Translations under genes and position numbers: made by a program
Part shown: in pieces, positions 1 through 34,483 of the stretch
How the letters are laid out: every line of letters starts with the position of its first letter
Numbering within the stretch: position 1 is the stretch's first letter
From: Bacteroidota bacterium
GTDB taxonomy: Bacteria > Bacteroidota > Ignavibacteria > UBA10030
Reading direction: 5' to 3'
DNA: 35,674 nucleotides
NCBI GenBank assembly: GCA_025454835.1
Contig: JALONQ010000027.1
Span: forward strand, 1 to 35,674
The notes under the pieces: generated by a model
The model's database searches: none
Told to the model about the DNA's origin: nothing
The model's input: only the letters and a program-made list of their open reading frames with translations

Positions 1-665
<665 letters not shown>

Positions 666-758
666 AGTTCTCGCCTCGCAAGAGGATGAGTAACTTCAAC
701 GATGAGGCCTTGTGACGATCGACCGCGGCCGTGCCACTTTTTCAAAGCACACGAAATC

Positions 759-772
759 TGTTCTTTTGACAA
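759..772 (+). promoter_or_regulatory. boxA-like antitermination site in the 16S-tRNA spacer
   Basis: TGTTCTTTTGACAA resembles the rrn boxA consensus (TGCTCTTTAACAA), the Nus-factor binding site on nascent pre-rRNA. It lies 13 bases upstream of tRNA-Ile. A near-identical copy sits at 1100-1112, ahead of 23S. The role is inferred from similarity and position. Confidence 0.55.
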
Positions 773-784
773 CTCGATCACACC

Positions 785-858
<74 letters not shown>

Positions 859-903
859 CGAGGCGTGCCTTTCCTGAGTGAGGGCACGTGTTCCCCGGCG
901 ATC

Positions 904-982
904 ATTGAAAATTGTAAAAGGTAAATTGGGAATTGACGAAGGTTGTCTTCCAATTTTCAATTTCCAATTGACAATTTACAAT
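904..982. repeat. AT-rich imperfect inverted repeat between the two spacer tRNAs
   Basis: Arm 904-936 matches the reverse complement of arm 950-982 at about 25 of 33 positions, with a loop of about 13 bases. Both arms are built from AATTG/CAATT words (ATTGAAAATTG, AATTTTCAATTTCC). The stretch is strikingly AT-rich next to GC-rich flanks and rRNA. It could fold into a long hairpin in the pre-rRNA or cruciform DNA. It contains no gene. Confidence 0.7.
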
Positions 983-987
983 GCTCC

Positions 988-1060
988 GGGGCTGTAGCTC
1001 AGTTGGGAGAGCACCAGCTTTGCAAGCTGGGGGTCAGGGGTTCGATCCCCCTCAGCTCCA
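988..1060 (+). tRNA. tRNA-Ala (anticodon TGC)
   Basis: Acceptor GGGGCTG (988-994) pairs with CAGCTCC (1053-1059) with one G-U, and the discriminator is A1060. The anticodon stem CCAGC/GCTGG encloses loop TTTGCAA, with TGC at 1021-1023. The D arm has GTAGCTCAGTTGGGAGAGC, and the T arm AGGGGTTCGATCCCCCT. CCA is not encoded. It is the second tRNA of the rRNA spacer. Confidence 0.97.
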
Positions 1061-1099
1061 CGAGTTTCACAATGCCCCTCGAAGGGTTTTGGGGTGTTT

Positions 1100-1112
1100 T
1101 GTTCTTTGACAA
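1100..1112 (+). promoter_or_regulatory. boxA-like antitermination site ahead of 23S
   Basis: TGTTCTTTGACAA matches the boxA core and the copy at 759-772, apart from one T. It sits between tRNA-Ala and 23S, where spacer boxA elements occur in other bacteria and are thought to reload antitermination factors before the long 23S gene. Confidence 0.55.
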
Positions 1113-1196
1113 TTCGGAAGACGTATTCAGACGAGTACGGTCAGTAGCGGTCTCGCTTTGGCGAGAAGCGCAAACGCCCGAAACATCTGGTACGAA

Positions 1197-1286
1197 GCGA
1201 TCCATTAATGTTTCTTCGTCCAATGTTGTATCGATGCACCTCCGCTCCGTCAATGTGGGGCGGGTACGTGTGTCAATAGATATTTC
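1197..1286 (+). other. 5' arm of the pre-23S processing stem
   Basis: This leader segment is complementary in blocks to the segment just after 23S. GCGATCC (1197-1203) pairs with GGATCGC (4306-4312). GTTGTATCGATG (1225-1236) pairs with CATCGATACAAC (4278-4289). ACCTCCGC (1238-1245) pairs with GCGGAGGT (4270-4277). AATAGA near 1275-1280 faces TCTATT at 4241-4246. Such a helix loops out 23S and is the usual RNase III substrate in rRNA maturation. Confidence 0.8.
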
Positions 1287-4236
<2,950 letters not shown>

Positions 4237-4312
4237 AATCTCTATTAACGCACAACCCCGCGCCACAGCGCGGAGGTCATCGATACAACCGTGGCGAAGC
4301 AACACGGATCGC
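4237..4312 (+). other. 3' arm of the pre-23S processing stem
   Basis: This is the complement of the 1197-1286 arm. The paired blocks are TCTATT (4241-4246), GCGGAGGT (4270-4277), CATCGATACAAC (4278-4289) and GGATCGC (4306-4312). It lies wholly between the 23S 3' end and 5S. Confidence 0.8.
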
Positions 4313-4334
4313 ATCTTCCAAATTGTCAGACATT

Positions 4335-4451
4335 TCTGGTGTCAATGTCGAGGGTGTTACACCTCTTCCCATTCCGAACAGAGCCGTTAAGCCCCTCGGA
4401 GCCGATGGTACTATGTGGGTAACTGCATGGGAGAGTAGGTCGATGCCAGAA
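4335..4451 (+). rRNA. rrf: 5S ribosomal RNA
   Basis: The terminal stem is formed by TTCTGG-type sequence at about 4335-4339 and CCAGA(A) at 4446-4451. Inside are the 5S signatures CACCTCTTCCCATTCCGAAC, AGAGCCGTTAAGCCC, GCCGATGGTACT and GGGAGAGTAGGTCG. The length of about 117 nt is normal. The ends may be off by one or two bases. Confidence 0.95.
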
Positions 4452-4459
4452 TTTTCTTT

Positions 4460-4488
4460 GAAGCCCCGGACATCTCGTCTGGGGCTTC
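4460..4488 (+). terminator. rRNA operon terminator hairpin
   Basis: GAAGCCCCGGAC (4460-4471) pairs with GTCTGGGGCTTC (4477-4488) over 12 bp (one G-T) around loop ATCTC. It is followed by ATCATTTCT, a modest T-rich tail. It lies 8 bases after 5S and ends the rrn operon. Confidence 0.85.
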
Positions 4489-4553
4489 ATCATTTCTGGC
4501 GCTGCTTCCCGAGAGAGATCGCGAAACCGCAGCCCCCTGCGTTACTCCGTTCC

Positions 4554-4582
4554 TTGCGCGCCCTCGCCGTTTTCCGTACGTT
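4554..4582 (+). promoter_or_regulatory. Predicted promoter of rlmN (leaderless start)
   Basis: The -35-like TTGCGC (4554-4559), a 17-base spacer and the -10-like TACGTT (4577-4582, followed by G) fit the pattern seen at seven other units here. Only six bases separate the -10 box from the rlmN ATG, so transcription would start at or next to the start codon. Confidence 0.6.
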
Positions 4583-4588
4583 GACGAC

Positions 4589-5716
4589 ATGTCCCGAACT
4601 TCGCTCACCGGATTGACGCTCGACGAACTCCGCACGTTCGTCATGGACCTCGGTGAGAAGCCGTACCGCGCCCACCAACTGTTCGCTTGGCTCTACAAGA
4701 ACGGCGTCAACGCCTTCAGCGACATGAGCGATCTTTCGAGGGACTTTCGGGATGTGCTCGAACGAGTCGCCGTCCCGGGCTCGCTCGAGCTCCTGACCAC
4801 TCGTCGATCCACCCGCGACGGCACCACGAAATTCCTCCTGCGGCTGCCCGACGATCTGGCCATCGAAGCGGTGCTCATACCGCCCGATGCCGATGCCCCC
4901 GATGTCGAACGCCGACTGACCCTCTGTGTCTCCACTCAAGTCGGTTGTCCGCTCGACTGCGCCTTCTGCGCCACTGGTACCATGGGCTTCTCCCGAAACC
5001 TTTCCGCCGGCGAGATCGTCGAACAGTACCTCTACGCACGACGCAACACCGATCGCCGCATCTCGAATATCGTCTTCATGGGCATGGGTGAGCCGATGCT
5101 CAACTATGACGAGGTCATGAAAGCGGTCGGAATCCTGACCGACAACCGGGGCGCACATCTGGGCGCCAGGCGCATCACGATCTCCACGGCCGGATACGTC
5201 AACCAGATCCGGCGCCTGGCCGACGAAGATCGCACCGTCAAATTGGCGCTCTCGCTGCATTCCCTCGACGAGGCGAAGCGTACAGCCCTGATGCCGATCA
5301 CGAAGAAGCATGGCATCACTGCGTTGACCGATGCGCTGGAGTACTACTATCGCCGCACGCGCATCCGTCCGACGTTGGAATACATTCCGTTCGAAGGATT
5401 CAACGATACCGACGCCGACGCCGACCTTCTCATCCGGTTCGCCCGCCGCGTGCCTTGCAAGGTGAACCTCATTCCGTTCCACTCGATCGAGTTCACGCGT
5501 CCGAGCGGATTCGCCGCGCAACTCAGGCCCAGCTCCGGAGCGCGGATCGAAGCGTTCGCCTCCCGTCTGCGCGATGCCCATCTGACCGTCATGGTCCGGA
5601 GCAGCGCCGGCGAGGACATCGAGGCCGCATGTGGACAACTGGCAGTCGCTGAAAGCGCTTCGCCTCGCCGCCTGCATGTCCGCGCGCCCAGAACCCCCGC
5701 ATCATCCCATCCCTGA
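4589..5716 (+). CDS. rlmN: Dual-specificity 23S rRNA (A2503)/tRNA (A37) C2-methyltransferase RlmN
   Basis: This radical-SAM methyltransferase adds a methyl group to C2 of adenine in 23S rRNA at A2503 and in some tRNAs at position 37. The protein has 375 residues, the usual length. The [4Fe-4S] motif CPLDCAFC supplies C120, C124 and C127. C113 in TLCVSTQ corresponds to the E. coli cysteine that forms the RNA adduct (C118), with the same 7-residue spacing. C348 in AACGQLA corresponds to the methyl-carrying C355. The SAM-binding segment NIVFMGMGEPMLNYDEV and the KVNLIPFH strand are also present. The gene follows the rRNA operon that contains its substrate (A3840 here) and has its own predicted promoter. 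It is probably co-transcribed with adk, 22 bases downstream. Confidence 0.96.
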   Translation: MSRTSLTGLTLDELRTFVMDLGEKPYRAHQLFAWLYKNGVNAFSDMSDLSRDFRDVLERVAVPGSLELLTTRRSTRDGTTKFLLRLPDDLAIEAVLIPPDADAPDVERRLTLCVSTQVGCPLDCAFCATGTMGFSRNLSAGEIVEQYLYARRNTDRRISNIVFMGMGEPMLNYDEVMKAVGILTDNRGAHLGARRITISTAGYVNQIRRLADEDRTVKLALSLHSLDEAKRTALMPITKKHGITALTDALEYYYRRTRIRPTLEYIPFEGFNDTDADADLLIRFARRVPCKVNLIPFHSIEFTRPSGFAAQLRPSSGARIEAFASRLRDAHLTVMVRSSAGEDIEAACGQLAVAESASPRRLHVRAPRTPASSHP

Positions 5717-24805: not shown

Positions 24806-27118
24806 TCACCACGTGATCTTGCTCCGCTTTCTCACCGCATCTTCTCCTTCGTTCCACTGCTCCGACGTGTGCTTCTCGCACAGGCCGATAGGGTACTTAG
24901 CGTTGAAGAGCTCGGATGCTTTGTCAGGACAGAATTCTCGGGCCTTTTTCTTGGTCTCGACGCAGATGGTGTCCTCGATGACGCCGTCGGGCTTGTTGAA
25001 GTTCTCGAGCGGCAGTCCGATGTCGGGATCGTCGTACGTATACTGCATGAAGCGACCCCATATCGGCGCGGCGGCCCGTCCGCCCTGACCGTCGTTGCTC
25101 CGGAACTTGATCCGGTTGTCGTCAAATCCCACCCACGCTCCCGCCGCAAGGCGCGGGGTGAATCCCACGAACCAAGCGTCGCCGTAGTCGTTGGTCGTTC
25201 CGGTCTTGCCTGCCGCCGGTCCGTCGTAGAACGTCCGAATGGCGCGGGTGGCCGTCCCGCCGTTCACGACGCCGCGCAGGAGGTCCGTCATCAGGTAGGC
25301 CGTTTCCTTGCTGAGCACCTCCCGTTTTTCCGGACCGGTTCGCTCGATGACATTGCCGTCCTTGTCCTCGATGCGGAGGATGGAGACGGGTGAAACATAG
25401 ACACCTTCGTTGGCGAACACGCCATAGGACGAGACGAGGTCAAGCGGGACGACTTCGACCGACCCGAGGGCGATCGATTCATACGGAGGGATCTGCGTGC
25501 GAATGCCCATGCGTTCCGCGTAGTCGGCCACCTGCTTGGCCGGCGCGATCTCGAGAATGGCGCGGACGGTCACCAGATTGATCGACAGTTTCAGGGCATC
25601 GCGCAGCGTGTACTTGCCGCCGACGGTCCGGTCGTAGTTGCTCGGCGTCCAACGGGTCCCGTCGGGCATGGGGATCGTCACCGGCTGATTGAGGAGCTCG
25701 TAGCAGGCCGGGTAGCCGTTGTCGAGTGCGACGGTGTAGACGAACGGCTTGAACGCCGAGCCTGGCTGGCGCCGGATCTGCGTCACATGGTTCAGGCCAT
25801 ACTTGAAGTTCCTGAAGTTACGTCCCCCGACCATGGCCATGATGCCGCCGGAGTGCGGATCGATGACGACGAACCCCACCTCGATCCGCTGCGTCATCCG
25901 CTTGACGGAATCGGTGAAGGCGGGGTTCGTGCGGAAGGCGTGGATGACGCTGTCGCGCTGGTCGGCGTTGCGTGAGCGGCGGTAGGCGTCGCTTTCGCGG
26001 ATCGTCTTGACGATGTTGTCCTCGAGGATGTCGGGATGTTCGGCCCAATTCCACGTGGAATCGAACAATGCCTGGAACGCTGGCAAGTGCTCCTCGACGG
26101 CCCTGTTGGCGTGCCGTTGCATGCGGCTGTCGACGGTGGTATAGACGCGCAGACCGTCGCGGTAGATGTCGAAACCGTACTGCTCCGCCTTTCGCTGGAG
26201 CTGACGCCGGACGAGCTCGACGAAATGCGGCGCGGTGCCGGCCCGGAAGTCGGAGTCCATCGACTGGATCTGGAGCGAATCAGCGCGAACGGCCGCCACG
26301 GAATCTGCCGACAGAAGACCCTCGCGGAGCATCTGGCCGAGGACGACGGCTCGGCGGTTGAGGGCGCGTTCGGGGTGATTGATGGGATCATAGTATCCCG
26401 GGCCGCGCAGCATCCCGATCAGGAGCGTGTATTCACCGGTCTGGAGCTCCAAGGCCGATTTTCCGAAGTACGTCCTCGCGGCCGACTCGATGCCGTAGGC
26501 GCCCCGGCCGTACCACACGACATTGAGATAGAGTTCGAGGATCTCGTCCTTGGTGAAGTTCCGTTCGATTTGGATGGACGTGAAGGCTTCCCGGATCTTC
26601 CGGGTGAATTTGTCGAAGATGTTCCGGTCGCGCCATTTCAGGTACAGATTGCGCGACAACTGCATCGTGATAGTACTGGCCCCTTCGGCATCGAGGTCGA
26701 AGGCCATGATATTCTTGATGAAGGCCTTGCCGATCCGGGTGACATGGAGACCCCAGTGGTTATAGAACTGCTTGTCTTCGGTCGCCACGAGCCCGGCGAT
26801 AAGCCCGGGAGGAAGCTGGCTGAGCGTCACGCGGGAGCGGTTCTTGTAGAAGATCTCGTCGAGCAACTCCCCGTCGATCCCGTAGATCTTCGTCGAAAGC
26901 TCTGGCCGAGGGTTCTCGAGCTCTTCCAGTGAAGGGAGCCCGTCGATGATGTAGACGGTGTACCAGGTGCCGAGGACGACGACGACGGCGAGGGCGGCGA
27001 TGACTGCGAGGATCGATCGCAGCGACCAGCGGCGGGAGCCACGGGCCTTGCGTCGGCGGTACTCGGGGTCGTTGAAATACCGCTGCATCTCGTCGGAGCT
27101 ATAGTGGGTGGATGCCAT
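24806..27118 (-). CDS. Class A penicillin-binding protein (PBP1A-type glycosyltransferase/transpeptidase)
   Basis: It polymerises lipid II into glycan strands and cross-links them at the inner membrane. The 770-residue protein has a basic cytoplasmic tail, one TM (about 35-57), then the GT51 domain. That domain contains VATEDKQFYNHWG (catalytic Glu114), EGASTITMQLSRNLYL, RKIREAFTSIQIERNFTKDEILELYLN and VWYGRGAYGIESAARTYFGKSA. The transpeptidase carries PGSAFKPF (S454, K457), SIN (S512-N514) and KTGTT (K638). All key residues are intact. The C-terminal segment has Cys-containing stretches (EDTICVETKKKAREFCP, KYPIGLCEKH) seen in some Bacteroidota PBPs. It begins nine bases after lpxH and ends at a strong terminator. 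Confidence 0.95.
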   Translation of the reverse strand: MASTHYSSDEMQRYFNDPEYRRRKARGSRRWSLRSILAVIAALAVVVVLGTWYTVYIIDGLPSLEELENPRPELSTKIYGIDGELLDEIFYKNRSRVTLSQLPPGLIAGLVATEDKQFYNHWGLHVTRIGKAFIKNIMAFDLDAEGASTITMQLSRNLYLKWRDRNIFDKFTRKIREAFTSIQIERNFTKDEILELYLNVVWYGRGAYGIESAARTYFGKSALELQTGEYTLLIGMLRGPGYYDPINHPERALNRRAVVLGQMLREGLLSADSVAAVRADSLQIQSMDSDFRAGTAPHFVELVRRQLQRKAEQYGFDIYRDGLRVYTTVDSRMQRHANRAVEEHLPAFQALFDSTWNWAEHPDILEDNIVKTIRESDAYRRSRNADQRDSVIHAFRTNPAFTDSVKRMTQRIEVGFVVIDPHSGGIMAMVGGRNFRNFKYGLNHVTQIRRQPGSAFKPFVYTVALDNGYPACYELLNQPVTIPMPDGTRWTPSNYDRTVGGKYTLRDALKLSINLVTVRAILEIAPAKQVADYAERMGIRTQIPPYESIALGSVEVVPLDLVSSYGVFANEGVYVSPVSILRIEDKDGNVIERTGPEKREVLSKETAYLMTDLLRGVVNGGTATRAIRTFYDGPAAGKTGTTNDYGDAWFVGFTPRLAAGAWVGFDDNRIKFRSNDGQGGRAAAPIWGRFMQYTYDDPDIGLPLENFNKPDGVIEDTICVETKKKAREFCPDKASELFNAKYPIGLCEKHTSEQWNEGEDAVRKRSKITW

Positions 27119-27127
27119 GATCGTGGG

Positions 27128-27931
27128 TCAGTCGCGGAACCGCCGGAGCGATATCCGCTGGCCGTCGAAGACGGCGTAGGTGCACTCGTCGATCCAGTCG
27201 CCGAGGTTCACATACGTCCCGTGCTCGTAGCGCTCAAAATGCGATTGATGATTGTGGCCCATGACGACAACGTCGACGCCGTTCCGGATGCGCTGACGTG
27301 CGAACTCCACCATGTCGTTCCCCTCATACACCTTCTTTCCGGTGTGCTGCCGGCTTGTCTTTGAGGACCAACGGGCCAGCCAGCCGGTCAGGTCGGGATG
27401 GAGAAGGGAGAAGAGAAAGACGTTCACCTTGTTCCGGAGAACGGCCTTGAGGATGCGATAACCGGTATCGTTGCGCAGCAAACCATCGCCATGGTGGATC
27501 AGGAAGTGCTTGCCGTAGAGGTCCCGTTCGATCGGGTCGGGACAAACCTCGATGCCGAACTCCTGCTCGAAATAGTCCCGCATCCAGAAATCATGATTCC
27601 CGACGACGTAGGTGATCCCAACCCCCTTGTCGCGCAGCGCGGCCAGGGCACCGAGCACGCGCACATGTCCTTTTGGCACGACCGACCGATACTCGAACCA
27701 GTAGTCGAACAGGTCTCCGACAATAAAGACGTGCTCGGCGCGACGTCCGATCCTTTGGAGGAACCGGACGACGCGGTCTTCTTTTGCGCGGTCCTCCTCG
27801 CGGGAACCGAGGCCCAAGTGCGCATCTGAGAAGAAGACGATGGGGCGGCGGGGGCGCCGTATCTGTGGTTTCGACGGGGTCACAACTTTGCAAGGTCGCA
27901 AAAATCGACCGTAAATCAAAGATTCGGCCAT
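27128..27931 (-). CDS. lpxH: UDP-2,3-diacylglucosamine diphosphatase (LpxH-type metallophosphoesterase)
   Basis: It hydrolyses UDP-2,3-diacylglucosamine to lipid X in lipid A synthesis at the inner-membrane face. The 267-residue protein has the full calcineurin-like metal set: FSDAHLG, VGDLFDYWFE, VVGNHDFWM, IHHGDG and MGHNHQSHF. The spacing between them and segments such as LLHPDLTGWLARW are as in LpxH homologues. Its presence implies a lipid A-bearing outer membrane. The ATG at 27931 adds about 28 residues before the first strand, and a GTG at 27883 is an alternative start; neither has a clear ribosome site. It is followed nine bases on by the PBP1A gene. Confidence 0.85.
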   Translation of the reverse strand: MAESLIYGRFLRPCKVVTPSKPQIRRPRRPIVFFSDAHLGLGSREEDRAKEDRVVRFLQRIGRRAEHVFIVGDLFDYWFEYRSVVPKGHVRVLGALAALRDKGVGITYVVGNHDFWMRDYFEQEFGIEVCPDPIERDLYGKHFLIHHGDGLLRNDTGYRILKAVLRNKVNVFLFSLLHPDLTGWLARWSSKTSRQHTGKKVYEGNDMVEFARQRIRNGVDVVVMGHNHQSHFERYEHGTYVNLGDWIDECTYAVFDGQRISLRRFRD

Positions 27932-28453
27932 TCAGCGGATCAGCGACGTACGGCGCCAGAAGGGTTGGCGGTCCCACCTTCGCTCTCCAAGCGTCAGCGG
28001 GAGTGAGACACACCGCAGGGCAAAGTCTTTGACGGCCCTGGAATGGCGCGGCGACCGACCGCGAGGATCCGATCGACCCGCCGTGTCACGACCCGACCGG
28101 AGAGGTCGAGATGCGAGCGATTGCGCTCATGCACGTCGATGAGATTAGAGGGGATCGGGAAGTCCGGCGGATGGCGTGCTCTGCGGGGACGAGGAACTTG
28201 GGGACAAGCCACGCCGGGCATGGATCCACTCGCGCACAACGCGCACACGAAGGCCGAGGTCATACTCCCGACGTCCACGCGGCTCCCGTAACTTTGCGGA
28301 GGGGTTGTTCGGCAGATCGAACTCGCACGTCGCATCGCCGCACTGGATCGCCACCGCGATCGCGGAGCCGTGTGCGGGTGCCGACGCGGGGCGCCAGCGG
28401 ATCACACGAGGACACCCATGTTCGGGATAGACCGGCGCATCGATCGGCGGTCC
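27932..28453. other. Gene-poor gap of about 520 bases
   Basis: This gap lies between two minus-strand genes. It contains short open frames on both strands (for example minus 28145-28405 and 27994-28335), but they overlap each other, have no recognisable motifs, and are Arg/Ser/Pro-rich as expected of GC-rich noncoding frames. The minus frame ending at 28145 (GDATCEFDLPNN, LGLRVRVVREWIH) has a less random look and could be part of a decayed gene. I see no tRNA, clear terminator or promoter matching the local consensus here. Confidence 0.4.
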
Positions 28454-29938
28454 TCAGGACACAGAACTCGTCGGCGGGAGGATCACGCGAAAGGTGCTGC
28501 CGCCGCCGACCGTGCTTTCGACCTCGATGGAGCCGTTGTGCGCTTCGGCGATCCATTTAGCGATTGACAGTCCGAGCCCGCTTCCCGGCGGCGATTCGCG
28601 GCCTTCTCGAAGGACGCGATGGAAGCGATCGAAGATGCGCGGCTGTTCATCGGCGGGAATGCCGATGCCGGTGTCCGACACAGCGATGACGGCCTGGCCA
28701 CCCCGTCGCGTGAGCGAAAGTCGGACCGCGCCGCCGTCGGGGGTATACTTCACCGCGTTGTCGATGAGATTGAGGAAGAGCTGGCGGAGCCGGAGCGGAT
28801 CGCCGACGACGGCGATGGGCTCGACGGGGTCGAAGGTAACAGTGATGCGCTGGGGTGCGGCGAGCATCTTCGCGTCCTCGAGGAGCTGGGTGAGCAGTTC
28901 GTGGAGCGGCACCTCGGAGAGGTCAAGGGCATGCCGGCCCACATCGCTCCGGACGAGCGACATGAGCCCTTCGACGATCGATGAGAGACGAACGAGCTCG
29001 TCCCTGAGGCTGGAGAGGAGCTCGCGCGTCTCGGCGCTGAGGCGCTTGCCCCGCAAAGCGACGTCGACCTCTCCCCGCATGATCGTCAACGGCGTGCGAA
29101 GTTCGTGCGACGCGTCGGCCGAGAACTGCTGGACCTGTGCGAACGAGGATTGCAGGCGTCCGATCATGTCGTTGAACTGCGCGCTGAGGCGGCCGAGCTC
29201 GTCGTCGACGCGCGCGGGCGGCAGGCGCCGCGTCAGGTTCTGGGCGGTGATCTCGCGCACTGCGGTCGTGATCTCATCGACGGGCTTCAACGACTTATGG
29301 GCGAGGAACCAGCCGCCGATTACGGAGATGAGAAACGCGAGCGGAGCGAAGTACCGGAAAGCCACAAATAGACTGTCAAGAACCTCGTTGACCGACTGCA
29401 GCGGGTAGCCGACGTAGATCTTCACGTAGTCGTTCTGCGTCACGGCCATCCGGATCTCCTCACCGCCGGGCATCGTGCTTGTGACGACCCGGATCCACTT
29501 GTACGGCATCTGCGGCCAATCGAGGCGCTTCGTGCCGAGCGTCTGCGAGGCGTAGAGCAGGTCGCCATTCCGGTCGAGGATCTGGATATAGTGACTCCGA
29601 GGCGTGAGCAGCGTGTGGCGGTAGATCTCACGCCACATCGCGTCGGTCTCGTCGTCGACGGCCAGCGAATCGCCGGGCGGGGCCGGTTGCTGGGCCGCGG
29701 TCTTGCGGAGCTCGCGGAGCTCGAGGATCGCCGCGCGCTTGAGCCGCACGCGCTTGGCTTTCGGCTCAATGAAGTCGTTGACCCACCGAACCTCGTTATG
29801 GAGCGATTCGTCGAGGTTCTCGATGAGGGCCGCCCTCGTGACGAAGGTCGCCGACACGCCGGTGATGAGCAATGTCATGCCCAGGCCGAGCGCGTACCAT
29901 GCAGTGAGACGATTGCGGATGGAGCGGATCTTGATCAC
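28454..29938 (-). CDS. Sensor histidine kinase (CusS/BaeS-like, HAMP-HisKA-HATPase)
   Basis: This membrane sensor should phosphorylate the response regulator encoded just upstream in its operon. The 494-residue protein has TM1 at about 12-34 and a periplasmic sensor of about 155 residues that includes YIQILDRNGDLLYAS and a PYKWIRVVTSTMPGGEEIRM strand pair. TM2 lies at about 192-213, followed by a HAMP linker (SLKPVDEITTAVREITAQNLTRRLP). HisKA has H278 in FSADASHELRTPLT. The ATPase has the N box NLIDNAVKY, G1 DTGIGIP, F box FDRF and G2 GSGLGLSIAK. All catalytic boxes are intact. Its ATG overlaps the regulator stop by four bases (ATGA). The signal is unknown; the layout resembles copper/envelope sensors. 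Confidence 0.95.
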   Translation of the reverse strand: MIKIRSIRNRLTAWYALGLGMTLLITGVSATFVTRAALIENLDESLHNEVRWVNDFIEPKAKRVRLKRAAILELRELRKTAAQQPAPPGDSLAVDDETDAMWREIYRHTLLTPRSHYIQILDRNGDLLYASQTLGTKRLDWPQMPYKWIRVVTSTMPGGEEIRMAVTQNDYVKIYVGYPLQSVNEVLDSLFVAFRYFAPLAFLISVIGGWFLAHKSLKPVDEITTAVREITAQNLTRRLPPARVDDELGRLSAQFNDMIGRLQSSFAQVQQFSADASHELRTPLTIMRGEVDVALRGKRLSAETRELLSSLRDELVRLSSIVEGLMSLVRSDVGRHALDLSEVPLHELLTQLLEDAKMLAAPQRITVTFDPVEPIAVVGDPLRLRQLFLNLIDNAVKYTPDGGAVRLSLTRRGGQAVIAVSDTGIGIPADEQPRIFDRFHRVLREGRESPPGSGLGLSIAKWIAEAHNGSIEVESTVGGGSTFRVILPPTSSVS

Positions 29939-30618
29939 GCCGTCCCGTTGCGGTCTTCAAGAATGTATCCCTTGCCCCGCTCCGTATGGAGGAGCTTGCT
30001 CGGGTAGCCGGCGTCGATCTTTTTGCGCACGTGGTTCACGTAGACGTCAACGATGTTTGTACCGGGGTCGAAATCGTATCCCCAGACCTCCCGGGCCAGA
30101 TCAAGGCGTGAGACCATCTTTCCGGCATGCCGCATGAGGTACTCCAGGAGGCTGTACTCGCGGGCGGTGAGATCGATCGAACGGTCGCCACGGAGGGCCT
30201 TGTGGCTCACCGTGTCGAGCTGGAGGTCGCCGACGCGGAGTTCAGTGCGCGTCTTTGAGCGGCGGAGGAGCGAGCGTACGCGAGCCAGCAGGACCTCGAA
30301 CGAGAAGGGCTTCGTGAGATAGTCGTCGGCGCCGAGGTCGAGCCCTCCGACGATGTCCTCGGTGGTGCTGCGGGCCGTCAGCAGAAGCACGGGGGTCACG
30401 ACACCGTCGGCGCGCAGGTCCTTGAGGATCTCGAAACCGTTCTTGCGGGGCAGGAGGACGTCGAGGATGATGAGATCGAAAGACTCGGAGCGGGCCTTGC
30501 GCTCGCCGCTCGGGCCATCGGGGGCCGTATCGACGACGTAGCCCTCCGTCTCGAGGCCGCGACGGAGGAACCTCGCAACCTTCACCTCATCTTCAACGAC
30601 CAGGATCTTGAGCGCCAT
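29935..30618 (-). CDS. OmpR/PhoB-family response regulator
   Basis: It is the DNA-binding output of the two-component pair. The 227-residue protein has a receiver domain (1-118) with the acidic pocket VVEDE and phospho-acceptor D53 in LIILDVLLP, the switch LLLTARST, and Lys in LTKPF. A winged-helix domain follows (about 128-222: LRVGDLQLDTVSHKA, LTAREYSLLEYLMRHAGKMVSR, NIVDVYVNHVRKKID, LLHTERGKGYIL). The kinase gene overlaps its stop. A TTGACA-N17-TACTTT promoter lies directly upstream, in the short region divergent from the TRAP operon. The regulator may therefore act on the neighbouring transporter, which is inference from position. Confidence 0.95.
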   Translation of the reverse strand: MALKILVVEDEVKVARFLRRGLETEGYVVDTAPDGPSGERKARSESFDLIILDVLLPRKNGFEILKDLRADGVVTPVLLLTARSTTEDIVGGLDLGADDYLTKPFSFEVLLARVRSLLRRSKTRTELRVGDLQLDTVSHKALRGDRSIDLTAREYSLLEYLMRHAGKMVSRLDLAREVWGYDFDPGTNIVDVYVNHVRKKIDAGYPSKLLHTERGKGYILEDRNGTA

Positions 30619-30724: not shown

Positions 30725-31594
30725 ATGAGACCTCACATGCGTTCAACCGCGATCGTTCTTGCGCTCGCTCTGACTCTGTCCGGCTGTATCCAGACCATTG
30801 CCATTCGGACGGTCGGCGGCATTATGGAGCACGGCTTCGCCGCCTTCAACGAAGAGGCAGACCTCGGAATCGCCCGTGAAGGGCTCAGCGGCAATCTCAA
30901 GCTGCTGGAAGCTCTCATCAAAGGGGACCCGAAGAACGAGAAGTTGCTCCTGTTCGCCGCTCAGGGCTACAGCGCCTATGCGCTGGCCTTCGTCGAAGAC
31001 GACAGCGTGGAACGAGCCCGGCCCCTCTACCTTCGGGCCCGCGAATACGCGTTCCGCATCCTGGAGCAGAAGATGGATCTGCGGGCCGCTCTGGCCGGCG
31101 ACCTTGAAGAACTGCGCTTGGCTGTGGATCGCCTGTCCGACGACGATGTGCCCGCGGTCTTCTGGGCCGCATTCTCGTGGGGAGCGTTCATCAACATCAG
31201 CCGTACGGACCTGACGGCCATGGGAGACCTGTCGAAGGTAGATGTCCTCATGGCGTTTGTCCACAAGCGTCAGCCTTCGTACTATTACGGCGGGTCGGAC
31301 GCGTATTTTGGGTCGATCCAAGGAACCATACCTGCCGTACTTGGGGGCCGGCCCGACCTTTCGAAGTCCCACTTTGAAAAGGCGATGTCCTATTCGCAGG
31401 GCCGATTCCTCATCGTGCAGGTGATGTTCGCCAAGACGTACTGCGTGCAGGTGCAGGACCGCGAGTTGTTCGAGAAGCTGCTCAGCGGCGTGCTCGAAGC
31501 GTCACTCGACGACATGCCCGAAGCTCGACTTCCGAACGCGATGGCGAAGAAGAAGGCTGAACGATTGCTGGCGGAGATCGACGAACTGTTTTGA
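30725..31594 (+). CDS. TRAP transporter TatT-component lipoprotein
   Basis: The product (289 residues from 30725, or 285 from the ATG at 30737) opens with a lipoprotein signal, ALALTLSGC, so it should be a lipid-anchored periplasmic protein. The body is all-helical and TPR-like: LLEALIKGDPKNEKLLLFAAQGYSAYALAFVEDD, ARPLYLRAREYAFRILE, VFWAAFSWGAFINIS, and YGGSDAYFGSIQGTIPAVLGGRPDLSKSHFEKAM. This matches the TatT family (Treponema pallidum Tp0956), which partners a TRAP binding protein. The order T-P-Q-M here is the diagnostic arrangement of these tetratricopeptide-associated TRAP systems. The predicted transcript start (about 30719) lies so close that the 30737 ATG may be the real start. Confidence 0.85.
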   Translation: MRPHMRSTAIVLALALTLSGCIQTIAIRTVGGIMEHGFAAFNEEADLGIAREGLSGNLKLLEALIKGDPKNEKLLLFAAQGYSAYALAFVEDDSVERARPLYLRAREYAFRILEQKMDLRAALAGDLEELRLAVDRLSDDDVPAVFWAAFSWGAFINISRTDLTAMGDLSKVDVLMAFVHKRQPSYYYGGSDAYFGSIQGTIPAVLGGRPDLSKSHFEKAMSYSQGRFLIVQVMFAKTYCVQVQDRELFEKLLSGVLEASLDDMPEARLPNAMAKKKAERLLAEIDELF

Positions 31595-31659
31595 AATGAT
31601 GGAGCTGAGACGTGTTCAGTGGACGGTCGTCCGACGTCAATCAAAAGCGGGACATCATT
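31595..31659 (+). promoter_or_regulatory. Nested inverted repeats between the T and P genes of the TRAP operon
   Basis: AATGATG (31595-31601) pairs with CATCATT (31653-31659). Inside, GACGT (31609-31613) pairs with ACGTC (31634-31638), and within that GGAC (31621-31624) pairs with GTCC (31629-31632). The gap carries no gene or matching promoter. The structure could stabilise the mRNA or adjust the ratio of lipoprotein to binding protein. That role is inference. Confidence 0.45.
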
Positions 31660-31684
31660 GAGACATTGACAGAAGAGTGAAACC

Positions 31685-32707
31685 ATGACGTTGAGAACCG
31701 TGACGCTGTTGACTCGAATGGCCATCATGGCTGCGGCAGCGCTCCTGTTGTTCGGAACATCATCGGCACAACAGTATACGATCAAGTTTGCCACGGTGGC
31801 GCCGGACGGCAGCACATGGATGAAGCTGTTGAGGGAGTATGACGAGGCGATCCGGAAGGAATCGGGCGGCCGGGTGAGGTTCCGGACGTATCCGGGGGGC
31901 GTGCAGGGAAAAGAGCAGGACGTTCTCCGGAAGATCACCATCGGTCAGCTCCAATCGGGCGGATTTACGGGGGTCGGCATGGGGGAGGTCGCGCCGGCCG
32001 TGCGCATTCTCGACGCGCCGTTCCTCTTCCGTACGCGGGCTGAAGTGGACCACATTCTGGAAAAGTTCACGCCCGAGTTCGAGAAGGCCTTCAACGACGG
32101 CGGATATGTGCTGCTGGGATGGGCCGAAGTGGGATTTGTCCACGTCTTCACGAACTCCGAGATCAAGTCTCCCGACGACCTGCGGAGACTCAAGCTTTGG
32201 ACGTGGGAAGGGGACCCGCTGGCGCAGGCGGCCTTCCGGGCGCTGAATTTGAGTCCGATCCCCTTGTCGCTCGAGAATGTGCTCTCTTCGCTGCAGACCG
32301 GGCTGATCGACGCGTTCTACACCTCTCCGTATGCTGGCCTGTCGCTTCAGTGGTTCACCCGGGCAAAGTTCATGGTGAATGTTCCGCTGGCCAACGCCAT
32401 GGGGGGCGTGCTGATCTCCAAGAAGTACTTCGACACGATGCCCGCCGACCTGCAGCAGATCGTGCTGAAGAACGGCCGAACCTACCTGCGACGGTTGACG
32501 GAGCTGAGCCGTCAGGACAACGACGCGGCTGTCAAGGAGTTCCAGAAGCGTGGTATCAAGATCCTCGAGGCCAAGGAATCCGACCTCAAGATCTATCAAG
32601 ATGCCGGCGTCAAGGCCCGTCGCGAATTGGCGGGAAAGATGTACAGCGAAGACCTGATGAGGCGTATCGAGACCGCGCTTGCCGAGTTACGGAAGAATGC
32701 GAAGTGA
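31685..32707 (+). CDS. TRAP transporter substrate-binding protein (DctP family, TatP-like)
   Basis: It should capture a ligand in the periplasm and pass it to the DctQ/DctM pair. The 340-residue protein has a signal peptide (RMAIMAAAALLLFGTSSAQQ). The DctP fold follows: IKFATVAPDGSTWMKLL, SGGRVRFRTYPGGVQGKEQD, RILDAPFLFRT, and PIPLSLENVLSSLQTGLIDAFYTSP, where the last block is the family signature region. In most DctP proteins the LKLRV strand carries the Arg that grips the ligand carboxylate (as in SiaP); here the strand reads LKLWTW with W172 at that position. The ligand may thus not be a simple carboxylate, in line with TatT partnership. GAAGAG precedes the ATG at a workable distance. Confidence 0.92.
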   Translation: MTLRTVTLLTRMAIMAAAALLLFGTSSAQQYTIKFATVAPDGSTWMKLLREYDEAIRKESGGRVRFRTYPGGVQGKEQDVLRKITIGQLQSGGFTGVGMGEVAPAVRILDAPFLFRTRAEVDHILEKFTPEFEKAFNDGGYVLLGWAEVGFVHVFTNSEIKSPDDLRRLKLWTWEGDPLAQAAFRALNLSPIPLSLENVLSSLQTGLIDAFYTSPYAGLSLQWFTRAKFMVNVPLANAMGGVLISKKYFDTMPADLQQIVLKNGRTYLRRLTELSRQDNDAAVKEFQKRGIKILEAKESDLKIYQDAGVKARRELAGKMYSEDLMRRIETALAELRKNAK

Positions 32708-32711
32708 CGGC

Positions 32712-33206
32712 ATGAAGATCCTGCTCAAGATCGACCGGGCTTTCGCGTCAGTCGAAGGAGCCCTGCTCATCCTTCTCCTGTCGGTGATGATCCTGCTGGC
32801 GTTCGTCCAGGTCGTCCTCCGGAACGCCTTCCATGAGGGGTTCATCTGGGCCGACATTCTCCTGCGGCATCTCGTCCTTTGGATCGGCATCCTGGGGGCC
32901 GCTCTCGCGGCGAGTCAGCAGCGGCACATCACCGTTGACGCCCTTACCCGGTTCCTGCCGCCGCGCCTTCGGCTTGGCGTACTGGCCTTTGCCCAGCTCT
33001 TTGCCGTGGCAGTCTGCGTTGTGCTGGCGGACGCCGCGGTGACGTTCGTGCGAAACGACCTGGCCTTCGGCTCCACGGTGTACGGTGAGGTGCCCGCCTG
33101 GACAAGCCAGATCATCATTCCGGTCGGGTTCGCCCTTCTCGCGTTCCATTTCCTCGTGCGTGCCCTTGAGAACGCCGTGGCGGCGTACCGCGGAGGAGAG
33201 CGATGA
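32712..33206 (+). CDS. TRAP transporter small permease (DctQ family)
   Basis: It is the small membrane subunit that supports the DctM channel. From the ATG at 32712, four bases after the DctP stop, the 164-residue protein begins MKILLKIDRAFASVEGALLI. An upstream in-frame start would overlap the binding-protein gene and add charged residues. It has four hydrophobic segments: about 16-35, 45-62 (HLVLWIGILGAALAASQQRHITVD, the conserved DctQ core), 85-105, and 130-150. The downstream gene overlaps it by four bases (ATGA). Confidence 0.93.
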   Translation: MKILLKIDRAFASVEGALLILLLSVMILLAFVQVVLRNAFHEGFIWADILLRHLVLWIGILGAALAASQQRHITVDALTRFLPPRLRLGVLAFAQLFAVAVCVVLADAAVTFVRNDLAFGSTVYGEVPAWTSQIIIPVGFALLAFHFLVRALENAVAAYRGGER

Positions 33207-34483
33207 AGTCTTGGCTCATCGTCGCTGCGCTCGTGCTCCTGGCCCTTGCTGGCGCGCCGTTGTTCACGATCATCGGCGCGATCGCCCTCTACGGGTTCTC
33301 CACCGTCGGCACCGACAGTTCGGCGGTCATCATCGAGCTCTACCGCATCGCCGACTCAGCACCGCTCATCGCGATCCCGCTCTTCACCTTCGCCGGCTAT
33401 CTGCTCGCGGAGAGCCGCTCTCCGCAGCGTCTCGTCAACCTCACGAAGTCGCTCGTCGGTTGGATCCCCGGGGGCATTGCGTTCGTCGTGCTCGTCGTGT
33501 GCGCATTCTTCACGGCCTTCACAGGGGCCTCGGGCGTGACGATCGTTGCGCTCGGCGGCCTGCTCCTGCCGATGCTCGTGGAGCAGAAGTATCCTGAGAG
33601 ATTCTCGATGGGACTCATCACGGCGTCCGGCAGCATCGGTCTGCTGTTCCCGCCCAGTTTGCCCATCATTATCTACGGCCTTGTCGCCTCGGTGAGCGTG
33701 GATCAGCTCTTCGTCGCCGGGACCTTGCCGGGCGTGTTGCTCGTCGCCATCCTCACGACCTACGGGATCCACGTCGGTATCAAGGCGAAGGTTCCGCGCA
33801 TCGCGTTCTCGTGGTCGAATCTCTGGTCGTCGGTCCGGGCGGCGTCATGGGAGATCCCGCTGCCGATCATCGTGGTGGGGGGTATCTACGGAGGGTGGTT
33901 CACGGCTACGGAGGCCGCGGCCATCACGGCGTTCTATGTGTTCGTCGTGGAGGTCTTCGTCTACCGCGATCTCACGCTGTTTGGGGATGTGCCGCGTGTC
34001 ATGAAAGAAAGCATGGTGCTGGTCGGCGCCATCCTCGCGATCCTCGGGGTGGCGTTCGGCCTGACGAACTACCTGATCGACCAGGAAGTACCGCAGCAGC
34101 TGTTCGAGCTGGTGAAGGAGCGCGTCTCCGACCCGCTCACGTTCCTGCTGATCCTGAACGTGTTCCTCATCGTCGTCGGCATGATGATGGATATCTTCTC
34201 GGCCACCATCGTCGTCGTGCCGCTCATCCTGCCGATCGCGCGGGAGTTCAACATCGATCCGGTGCATCTGGGGATCATCTTCCTGACGAATCTCGAGATC
34301 GGCTACCTGACGCCTCCCGTCGGGCTCAACATCTTTCTCTCGAGCCTTCGGTTCGGCAAGCCGGTCTTTACCATCGTCCGGTCCGTTCTCGTCTTCATTC
34401 TGCTTGAGCTCGTGGCTCTCGGGATCATCACCTACTACCCGGACCTCAGTTTGTGGCTGGTGAGGGCGTTAGGAACACAGTAG
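33203..34483 (+). CDS. TRAP transporter large permease (DctM family)
   Basis: This is the main ion-coupled transport subunit (usually Na+-driven) of the TRAP system. The 426-residue protein has about 12 hydrophobic segments. It has the DctM motifs IPLFTFAGYLLAES, FFTAFTGASGVTIVALGGLLLPML, GLITASGSIGLLFPPSLPIIIYG, YGGWFTATEAAAITAFY, and EIGYLTPPVGLNIFLSS. These include the two helix-breaking hairpin regions of the family. The start overlaps the DctQ stop. No TRAP metabolic genes lie nearby, so the substrate is not indicated by context. A purine-rich run follows the stop. Confidence 0.95.
   Translation: MKSWLIVAALVLLALAGAPLFTIIGAIALYGFSTVGTDSSAVIIELYRIADSAPLIAIPLFTFAGYLLAESRSPQRLVNLTKSLVGWIPGGIAFVVLVVCAFFTAFTGASGVTIVALGGLLLPMLVEQKYPERFSMGLITASGSIGLLFPPSLPIIIYGLVASVSVDQLFVAGTLPGVLLVAILTTYGIHVGIKAKVPRIAFSWSNLWSSVRAASWEIPLPIIVVGGIYGGWFTATEAAAITAFYVFVVEVFVYRDLTLFGDVPRVMKESMVLVGAILAILGVAFGLTNYLIDQEVPQQLFELVKERVSDPLTFLLILNVFLIVVGMMMDIFSATIVVVPLILPIAREFNIDPVHLGIIFLTNLEIGYLTPPVGLNIFLSSLRFGKPVFTIVRSVLVFILLELVALGIITYYPDLSLWLVRALGTQ

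What the first reader, a model, noticed from the sequence alone, without database searches (positions are those of the whole stretch)
30725..34483. Tetratricopeptide-associated TRAP transporter (T-P-Q-M) whose binding protein lacks the usual substrate Arg
Seen: four genes in tight order with a TatT-like lipoprotein first, and W172 in the strand (LKLWTW) where DctP proteins normally carry the ligand-binding Arg (LKLRV). Known: in Treponema, TatT (Tp0956) binds the TRAP binding protein (Tp0957), and a non-polar ligand has been suggested. Inference: this bacterium imports a ligand that is not a classical carboxylate, delivered by the lipoprotein.
Basis: partly seen in the sequence, partly recalled or inferred. 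Interest (0 to 1): 0.6.

Follow-up and report, generated by a model that had tools for sequence, protein, structure and literature searches.

The report
Lipid-type TRAP importer with tryptophan gate
This bacterium carries a four-part importer of a known but poorly understood kind, whose binding protein has a tryptophan where ordinary relatives hold the arginine that grips acid nutrients; the same tryptophan recurs in most of the linked relatives read here, so it probably carries something greasy rather than an acid.

Summary
Window 30725-34483 (+) encodes TatT, DctP, DctQ and DctM (T-P-Q-M), and W172 of P sits where classical DctPs hold the ligand arginine. The T model matches TatT/Tp0956 closely (Z 29.9). 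So this is a TPAT, a transporter class described in 2012, and the only DctP-type TRAP found in this Ignavibacteria-type genome.

What is added: (1) the second conserved DctP arginine is lost too (V152). (2) W172 is no oddity: 74 of 74 readable T-adjacent P's from named genomes have W-x-W, and 26 of 28 in the Desulfobacteraceae phylum have W. Published Tp0957 has Ala; 29 Spirochaete-phylum P's vary (A, G, S, I, L, F, C, V, W). (3) With gate columns removed, 60 non-Arg P's form one side of a branch, with one Arg/non-Arg change. (4) A separate set of 7 TatT-linked systems, 5 of them in the Spirochaete phylum, keeps both arginines, so TatT alone does not predict a hydrophobic ligand.

Best reading: import of a non-carboxylate, probably lipid-like ligand handed from T to P. 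The ligand is unknown.

The parts
30725..31594 (+). T: TatT-like (TRAP T-component) lipoprotein, 289 aa; start could be 30737
   Evidence: PF16811 E 7e-75; phmmer to Tp0956 E 6.1e-13 and 8g52 E 1.5e-16; model Z 29.9 to 4di3_A, 29.7 to 8g52_A, 29.4 to 3u64
31685..32707 (+). P: DctP-family binding protein, 340 aa, signal peptide without lipobox
   Evidence: PF03480 E 6e-42; model TM 0.85 to Tp0957 3u65_A and 0.90 to 4p47
32138..32140 (+). codon of V152 in P, the place of another Arg conserved in DctPs (SiaP R127 by recall)
   Evidence: R in the five printed solved homologues; V/I/L/A in 74 of 74 readable T-adjacent contig P's
32198..32200 (+). codon of W172 in P, the place of the Arg gate (SiaP Arg-147)
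   Evidence: strand in model
32204..32206 (+). codon of W174, two residues on in the same strand
   Evidence: W in 74 of 74 readable contig P's, 16 of 28 and 3 of 29 in the two phylum draws, 0 of 10 unlinked Arg-type P's
32712..33206 (+). Q: DctQ small permease, 164 aa
   Evidence: PF04290 E 2.5e-24
33203..34483 (+). M: DctM large permease, 426 aa, 4-base overlap with Q
   Evidence: PF06808 E 6.5e-80, TIGR00786 E 9e-107
28454..30618 (-). Divergent two-component system (response regulator 29935-30618, HAMP histidine kinase 28454-29938), possible regulator of the operon (inference)
   Evidence: Pfam; clusters holding the regulator and the kinase are both found in 30 of 80 contig loci

Best explanation
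The locus is a complete TPAT: a TRAP importer with a TatT lipoprotein. T, an all-helical TPR-like protein with a central pore in its studied relative, takes a largely non-polar ligand in the periplasm and hands it to P. P closes over it in a DctP cleft whose two conserved arginine places are V152 and W172, and delivers it to the Q-M permease, which drives uptake with an ion gradient. Shown here: the four families, gene order, predicted folds of T and P, absence of both arginines, and the conservation and single change of the gate on the trees. Taken from print: T-P binding with pore and cleft aligned, and a hydrophobic ligand as a suggestion (Treponema). Inferred: that W172 faces the cleft, that the ligand is lipid-like, and the direction and coupling. 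Because the system is mostly single-copy and near-universal in this order and no catabolic neighbour was seen, a housekeeping role (for example envelope lipid salvage) is more likely than use of one food source.
For: Families and order. T fold equals TatT. P fold is DctP, with Tp0957 among the matches. V152 and W172 replace both arginines. W-x-W in 74 of 74 readable T-adjacent contig P's. T-unlinked DctPs mostly hold Arg: L114-L117 and L119 in TatT-bearing genomes, L173-L177 in the window's relatives, and 26 of 31 aligned plus 4 by eye. Non-Arg P's are one side of a branch, 100/100, with gate columns removed. TatT match in 38 of 41 genomes of the order, own included; 31 of the 41 have exactly one DctP match. 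Hydrophobic pore and cleft in T. pallidum as reviewed in PMC5812351 (passages). A TAtT-family relative, BstC, binds sterols (PMC10942540 passages).
Against: No ligand, no complex model and no coordinates: the direction of the W172 side chain was not seen. Seven TatT-linked systems keep both arginines, so TatT does not by itself mean a hydrophobic cargo. T also occurs without an adjacent P (6 of the 30 best Spirochaete-phylum loci; L097, L099, L105; many weak T matches), and W-type P's occur without a T nearby (L122, L134, L139, L141, 8 kb read). The neighbourhood gives no substrate clue. BstC is a distant relative (Z 19.4). A DctP without the Arg can bind a polar ligand: ethanolamine in Csal_0678 (PMC4646407 passage).
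Confidence: 0.6

Rival explanations
1. Non-Arg pocket for a small cationic or quaternary-amine ligand: W172 and W174 form an aromatic box, as in betaine-type binding proteins (recalled), rather than a lipid pocket.
For: Two Trp two residues apart in one strand. A DctP without the Arg binds ethanolamine (PMC4646407 passage). A few TatT-linked P's have an acid at place 152 (D in L262, D and E in L265).
Against: The acids next to W174 are not specific to this class: E175 is also in 5 of 10 unlinked Arg-type P's, and D177 stands opposite Ser in 8 of those 10, just before a helix, as an N-cap would. Trp is lost in many Spirochaete-phylum TPATs that keep T. The pore of the studied TatT is hydrophobic.
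Confidence: 0.15
2. A carboxylate importer after all: another cationic residue (R107, or R82/K83) holds the acid group, so the ligand is an acid such as a fatty acid.
For: R107 is R in 74 of 74 readable contig P's and K83 is K in 75 of 75; K83 is kept in 28 of 28 and 27 of 29 in the two phylum draws. A fatty acid would satisfy both a hydrophobic tail and an acid head.
Against: R107 is R in 0 of 29 Spirochaete-phylum P's and 9 of 28 in the Desulfobacteraceae phylum. K83 lies in a helix by the model and could serve T, Q or M contacts; it is R in L303 and L in one P of L265, and it also occurs in two unlinked Arg-type P's, L294 and L295.
Confidence: 0.2
3. The operon has lost transport and acts as an envelope or signalling scaffold.
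For: Some T genes stand without P, so T may have other uses.
Against: All four genes are found in order in 64 of 80 contig loci; Q and M of the window score far above the Pfam cut-offs. No test of selection was made.
Confidence: 0.03

Closest known systems
Treponema pallidum TPAT (TatT Tp0956, TatP(T) Tp0957, TatQM)
   Same: T-family lipoprotein with the same fold (Z 29.4-29.9), DctP-fold P without the Arg, linked genes
   Different: Tp0957 has Ala at the gate, not Trp (passages); the locus taken for it (L143, a 1.1 Mb genome, identity inferred) reads IALSSLDS where the window reads LWTWEGD. The review speaks of one DctQM homologue; here Q and M are separate genes. P here has no lipobox (0 of 76 W-type P's by a simple pattern)
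SiaP / classical DctP-type TRAP binding proteins
   Same: Fold (TM 0.78-0.90 over the 50 rows shown), P-Q-M set
   Different: Both conserved arginines replaced (V152, W172); TatT added; K83 where 10 unlinked Arg-type P's have Leu, Ala or Gln
PDB 8g52 'bacterial TPAT family transporter' (2023)
   Same: T fold, Z 29.7, and best sequence match of T in the PDB
   Different: Only the T-type protein is in the entry; a library search for its code found no structural-biology paper
BstC sterol-binding protein (7t1s)
   Same: Distant T-family fold, Z 19.4; hydrophobic cavity (passages)
   Different: Linked with BstA/BstB and sterol genes, not with a TRAP permease
Arg-bearing TatT-linked TRAPs found here (L211, L239, L240, L246-L248, L311)
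   Same: PF16811-family T next to P; Q and M follow in L211, L239, L240 and L246-L248
   Different: P keeps both arginines; P, and T where tested, fall apart from the non-Arg class

Membership tests
TPAT (TPR-protein-associated TRAP transporter) | T-component of the TAtT family beside the TRAP genes | tested here: met
   PF16811 E 7e-75, score 252.2, cut-off 26.5 bits
TPAT (TPR-protein-associated TRAP transporter) | T has the TatT fold | tested here: met
   Model pLDDT 93.6; Z 29.9, rmsd 2.0, 255 aligned to 4di3_A
TPAT (TPR-protein-associated TRAP transporter) | P is a DctP-fold protein, as a rule lacking the gate Arg | tested here: met
   W172 in place of Arg
TPAT (TPR-protein-associated TRAP transporter) | T is a lipoprotein | tested here: met
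   Lipobox LTLSGC by sequence; a [GAS]C at the expected distance in 78 of 80 contig T's
TPAT (TPR-protein-associated TRAP transporter) | P is a lipoprotein, as reported for Treponema | tested here: not met
   No lipobox in the window P or in any of 76 W-type P's by a simple pattern; a similar pattern also missed 23 of 23 Spirochaete-phylum P's, so the test is weak. Not treated as defining
TPAT (TPR-protein-associated TRAP transporter) | T binds P, pore aligned with cleft | not testable with these tools
   No complex prediction offered
TPAT (TPR-protein-associated TRAP transporter) | Hydrophobic ligand | not testable with these tools
   Suggested in print, unproven
Classical carboxylate DctP-TRAP | Gate Arg in P (SiaP Arg-147) | tested here: not met
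   W172
Classical carboxylate DctP-TRAP | DctP fold and P-Q-M set | tested here: met
TAXI-TRAP | TAXI-type binding protein, usually fused QM | tested here: not met
   P matches DctP alone in Pfam up to E 0.1; Q and M are separate genes
BstC sterol-trafficking system | T-family protein beside BstA/BstB and sterol genes | tested here: not met
   The adjacent genes scanned are TRAP genes and a two-component system; sterol genes elsewhere in the genome were not searched for

The most novel reading that the evidence does not exclude
TatT was recruited to an Arg-bearing TRAP binding protein, and in one lineage the two pocket arginines were replaced once by an aliphatic residue and a tryptophan, turning a carboxylate importer into a lipid importer. 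That Trp-gate class spread across many phyla as a housekeeping envelope-lipid uptake system. The alanine of Treponema, the only studied case I know of, is a late, derived state. The Arg-keeping TatT-linked class is the surviving sister.
Probability: 0.33. Interest if true: 0.75.

Novelty: new variant of a known kind. Interest (0 to 1): 0.5.

Why it matters
What TPATs carry has been open since 2012, and the studied example comes from a spirochaete with a reduced genome. The survey suggests that its alanine gate is unusual: Trp is the commonest state read here and the parsimony ancestor of the non-Arg class. It also gives matched material for a test, namely non-Arg and Arg-bearing TatT-linked binding proteins that can be compared for ligand. 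In 31 of 41 genomes of this order one DctP match is all there is, and it is W-type next to TatT in the 30 loci read, which points to a role unlike the usual many-copy catabolic uptake.

Tried and rejected
Neighbourhood clustering for a substrate pathway found, among 80 contig loci: response regulator 32 and kinase 30, a calcineurin-like phosphoesterase 16, a penicillin-binding protein 16, all four together 13; a PD40/Peptidase-MA protein in 18 and a ferritin-like product (by eye) in 11. Among the clusters listed I saw no catabolic gene; only the 25 largest were printed, and many loci are close kin.

A plasmid search with T gave no match. Chance or alignment artefact for W172 was rejected. A gate unique to this bacterium was rejected. 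'TatT implies loss of Arg' was rejected.

Alignment slips: L296 and L298-L300 print L at the gate but show KVR/KIR further on in the printed segment, so I read them as Arg by eye; the two used in the tree (L298, L299) aligned as R there. L292 has Cys. L138/L140 is one short protein that did not align at the gate; it was listed as non-R and is not counted in my text. The 30 classical loci are the best-scoring ones, so they lean to classical DctPs.

Rows dropped before the trees: only 21 of 74 contig P's went in from the start; 32 rows (near-copies, long or doubtful ones) were dropped and 9 added, where L262, L265 and L269 were also left out; 10 more, L116, L119, L122 and L134 among them, were dropped and 21 added, with 16 of the 31 classical P's. 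The first quick tree needed two Arg/non-Arg changes, because L138 fell among the Arg rows. T linkage needs two changes on the tree, because L141 (W, no T nearby) lies within the T-linked set. L311's T is not in the T tree.

W-type P's without T in the stretch read: L122/L213, L134/L214, L139/L215 and L141/L216 (8 kb), plus L132/L217 and L212, which end at contig ends. Six of the 30 best Spirochaete-phylum T loci had no P; all six lie by a reductase-like gene, by eye. L151 and L220 gave no usable P.

The Deka 2012 and Brautigam 2012 papers are not held, so what they say of Trp gates is unread. Paper searches. None listed a paper on a Trp gate in TRAP binding proteins, but most subscription papers are missing, and only 25 of 708 papers were shown. 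All five papers used were seen as passages only (PMC5812351, PMC4646407, PMC10942540, PMC11931723, PMC8407342).
Full report
OBSERVATION. The window holds, on the + strand, T (30725-31594), P (31685-32707), Q (32712-33206) and M (33203-34483). Pfam names them TAtT, DctP, DctQ and DctM with strong E-values. In the five solved DctPs whose alignments one search prints, the residue opposite W172 is Arg, and the residue opposite V152 is also Arg (GFRN, GSRS, GFRH, GTRN, GARS). The P model (71 sequences, pLDDT 94.6) has a strand at mature 141-144, that is residues 171-174.

THE SYSTEM. The T model (79 sequences, pLDDT 93.6) matches TatT of T. pallidum at Z 29.9 (4di3_A, rmsd 2.0, 255 residues) and 29.4 (3u64), and 8g52_A at 29.7; the sterol binder BstC (7t1s) comes next at 19.4. 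The P model matches DctP proteins in general, Tp0957 included (3u65_A, TM 0.85). The genome (3.2 Mb, listed as 100% complete) has one TAtT match and one DctP match, both in this operon; TAXI-type TRAPs were not searched for. Near relatives are named Ignavibacteria. Among 41 genomes of the same order (own included), 38 have a TAtT match and 38 a DctP match; 31 of the 41 have exactly one DctP match and 7 have more. In all 30 loci read, P lies next to T on the same strand. One T-less genome (G038) has a W-type P at a contig end. In a draw of 296 genomes of the phylum, own order included, 20 had a match, 16 above the family cut-off.

THE GATE ACROSS TatT-LINKED SYSTEMS. A scan of named genomes with the T alignment kept the best 80 of 169 relatives. 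P follows T in 75 of 80 and T-P-Q-M is in order in 64 of 80; some of the rest are cut by contig ends. One of the 75 P's (L069) is cut before the gate; the other 74 all have W-x-W, as does the window. They come from records named Ignavibacteria, Bacteroidetes, Chlorobi, KSB1, Calditrichota, Deferribacteres, Desulfobacterales, Deltaproteobacteria, Spirochaetaceae, Caldisericaceae and Anammoxibacter. The scan favours relatives of this T, so I also drew genomes by phylum with PF16811. In the phylum of L107 (Desulfobacteraceae) 61 of 148 genomes match; of the 30 loci taken, 28 P's could be read: W 26, F 1, Y 1. In the phylum of L096 (Spirochaetaceae) 105 of 247 match; the 30 best loci and 13 more were read, giving 29 distinct T-linked P's: A6 I4 G4 S4 L3 F3 W2 C2 V1 (L172 is a copy of L135, also W, and is counted elsewhere). 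In the phylum of L101 (Anammoxibacter) 10 of 59 match; among the loci read, W in L302, L303, L306, L308 (= L312) and L309, F in L301, and R in L311; seven loci had no P in the stretch.

CONTROLS. Twelve genomes that hold a TatT were searched for all their DctPs. Those with no T in the flank and readable at the gate are Arg in L114-L117 and L119, and W in L122, L132, L134, L139 and L141. In relatives of the window, the extra DctPs read (L173-L177) are all Arg. Of 31 T-unlinked DctPs from the Desulfobacteraceae phylum (best-scoring loci, 59 genomes searched), 26 align Arg, four more read Arg by eye after an alignment slip, and one has Cys. Place 152 is R in 8 of 10 unlinked Arg-type P's. It is V, I, A or L in all 74 readable contig P's and never R in the 28 and 29 P's of the two phylum draws; in three further T-linked P's it is D or E (L262, L265 twice).

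A SECOND CLASS WITH ARGININE. Weaker and middling PF16811 matches were then read (40 regions, and L211). Six T-P-Q-M operons have a divergent T and a P with both arginines: L211 (own family, in a genome that also has the W-type system) and L239, L240, L246, L247 and L248 (Spirochaete phylum). A seventh, L311, has T and P with both arginines; its Q and M were not read. In the same batch the other T-linked P's have W (L265 twice, L267, L268, L269 twice, L270) or L (L262), and most remaining T matches had no P in the stretch. This goes against using TatT alone as a sign of a hydrophobic cargo. The T of L211 is a family member by score (99 bits, cut-off 26.5).

HISTORY. With the gate columns and site 152 left out, a careful tree of 89 P's (22 T-unlinked Arg, 7 T-linked Arg, 60 non-Arg, of which L141 has no T nearby) puts each set on one side of a branch: 100/96, 99/92 and 100/100 (ultrafast bootstrap/SH-aLRT); Arg/non-Arg needs one change. 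A tree of 78 rows agrees; the first quick tree, with a fragment and long rows in it, needed two. Rooted on the Arg rows, parsimony at the single gate site of the 78-row tree gives W for the ancestor of the non-Arg P's. The root is an assumption, and classical DctPs are far more diverse than the 22 used. In a quick T tree (79 rows) the T's of six Arg-type systems are parted from all T's of non-Arg systems by a branch with SH-aLRT 100, but they lie there with P-less weak T's. So T and P differ together.

MECHANISM. The most likely working is that of the TPAT model in print: TatT receives a ligand, its pore faces the P cleft, and P passes it to the permease (PMC5812351 passages; the original papers were not readable). 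The arginine is needed for high-affinity carboxylate binding in SiaP, and its absence goes with atypical ligands (PMC4646407 passages). A P with neither arginine, a Trp and a Val in their places, and a partner whose studied relative has a hydrophobic pore, most likely binds a largely non-polar molecule. The neighbouring E175 and D177 are not evidence for a cation site: E175 is common in Arg-type P's too, and D177 stands where a helix begins, opposite Ser in the Arg-type. A fatty acid held by R107 or K83 stays possible. R107 is invariant in the contig P's but not in other TPATs; K83 is nearly invariant in the non-Arg TPATs (exceptions: two of 29, L303, one P of L265) and could equally be a contact to T or the permease.

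COMPARISON AND NOVELTY. That TPATs exist, that TatP(T) lacks the Arg, and that a hydrophobic ligand is suspected are all known. A Methylocaldum TPAT was noted in 2025 (PMC11931723 passage). [quoted passage not shown] Trp as the common and probably ancestral TPAT state, the joint loss of both arginines in a single change, and the Arg-keeping TatT-linked class appeared in none of the passages I read; the searches were made, and the two founding papers were not available. I file the locus as a TPAT, Trp-gate variant.

LIMITS. No ligand, no complex and no coordinates. Counts are of sampled or best-scoring loci, and many contig loci are close kin. Phylum names rest on record titles. On checking I lowered confidence in the best explanation from 0.62 to 0.60, because the W-type P's without a nearby T are now weighed against it.

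Noticed in passing
L211 (G004:C17:17500-24500), 1081-4904 -: A second T-P-Q-M operon in a genome of the window's own family, with a divergent TatT and a P that keeps both arginines; five more such operons in the Spirochaete phylum and one T-P pair in the Anammoxibacter phylum (L311).
   Followed up: yes
L152, L154, L155, L162, L164, L166 and L099: Spirochaete and Leptospira-type TatT genes without a binding protein nearby, each beside a reductase-like gene (by eye); in the Leptospiraceae genome a W-type P lies elsewhere (L122/L213).
   Followed up: partly
L214, L215, L216 (Anammoxibacter genome G330): Three further W-type binding proteins with no TatT within the 8 kb read, in a genome with one TatT match: several P's may share one T.
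   Followed up: partly
window 24806-30618: Two-component system, calcineurin-like phosphoesterase (LpxH-like by eye) and class A penicillin-binding protein run divergently from the operon; clusters of all four proteins are found together in 13 of the 80 contig loci, close kin for the most part.
   Followed up: partly
window 1-4451: End of 16S rRNA, tRNA-Ile, tRNA-Ala, 23S and 5S rRNA at the start of the window (an ordinary rRNA operon).
   Followed up: no
L262, L263, L265, L269, L270: Other gene orders: two adjacent W-type binding proteins beside one TatT (L265, L269), Q-M before T (L263, L269, L270), T after M (L262).
   Followed up: no
P residue 83 (window 31931-31933): Lys nearly invariant in non-Arg TPAT binding proteins (75 of 75, 28 of 28, 27 of 29) and absent from the seven Arg-keeping TatT-linked ones; unexplained, perhaps a contact to T or the permease.
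   Followed up: partly
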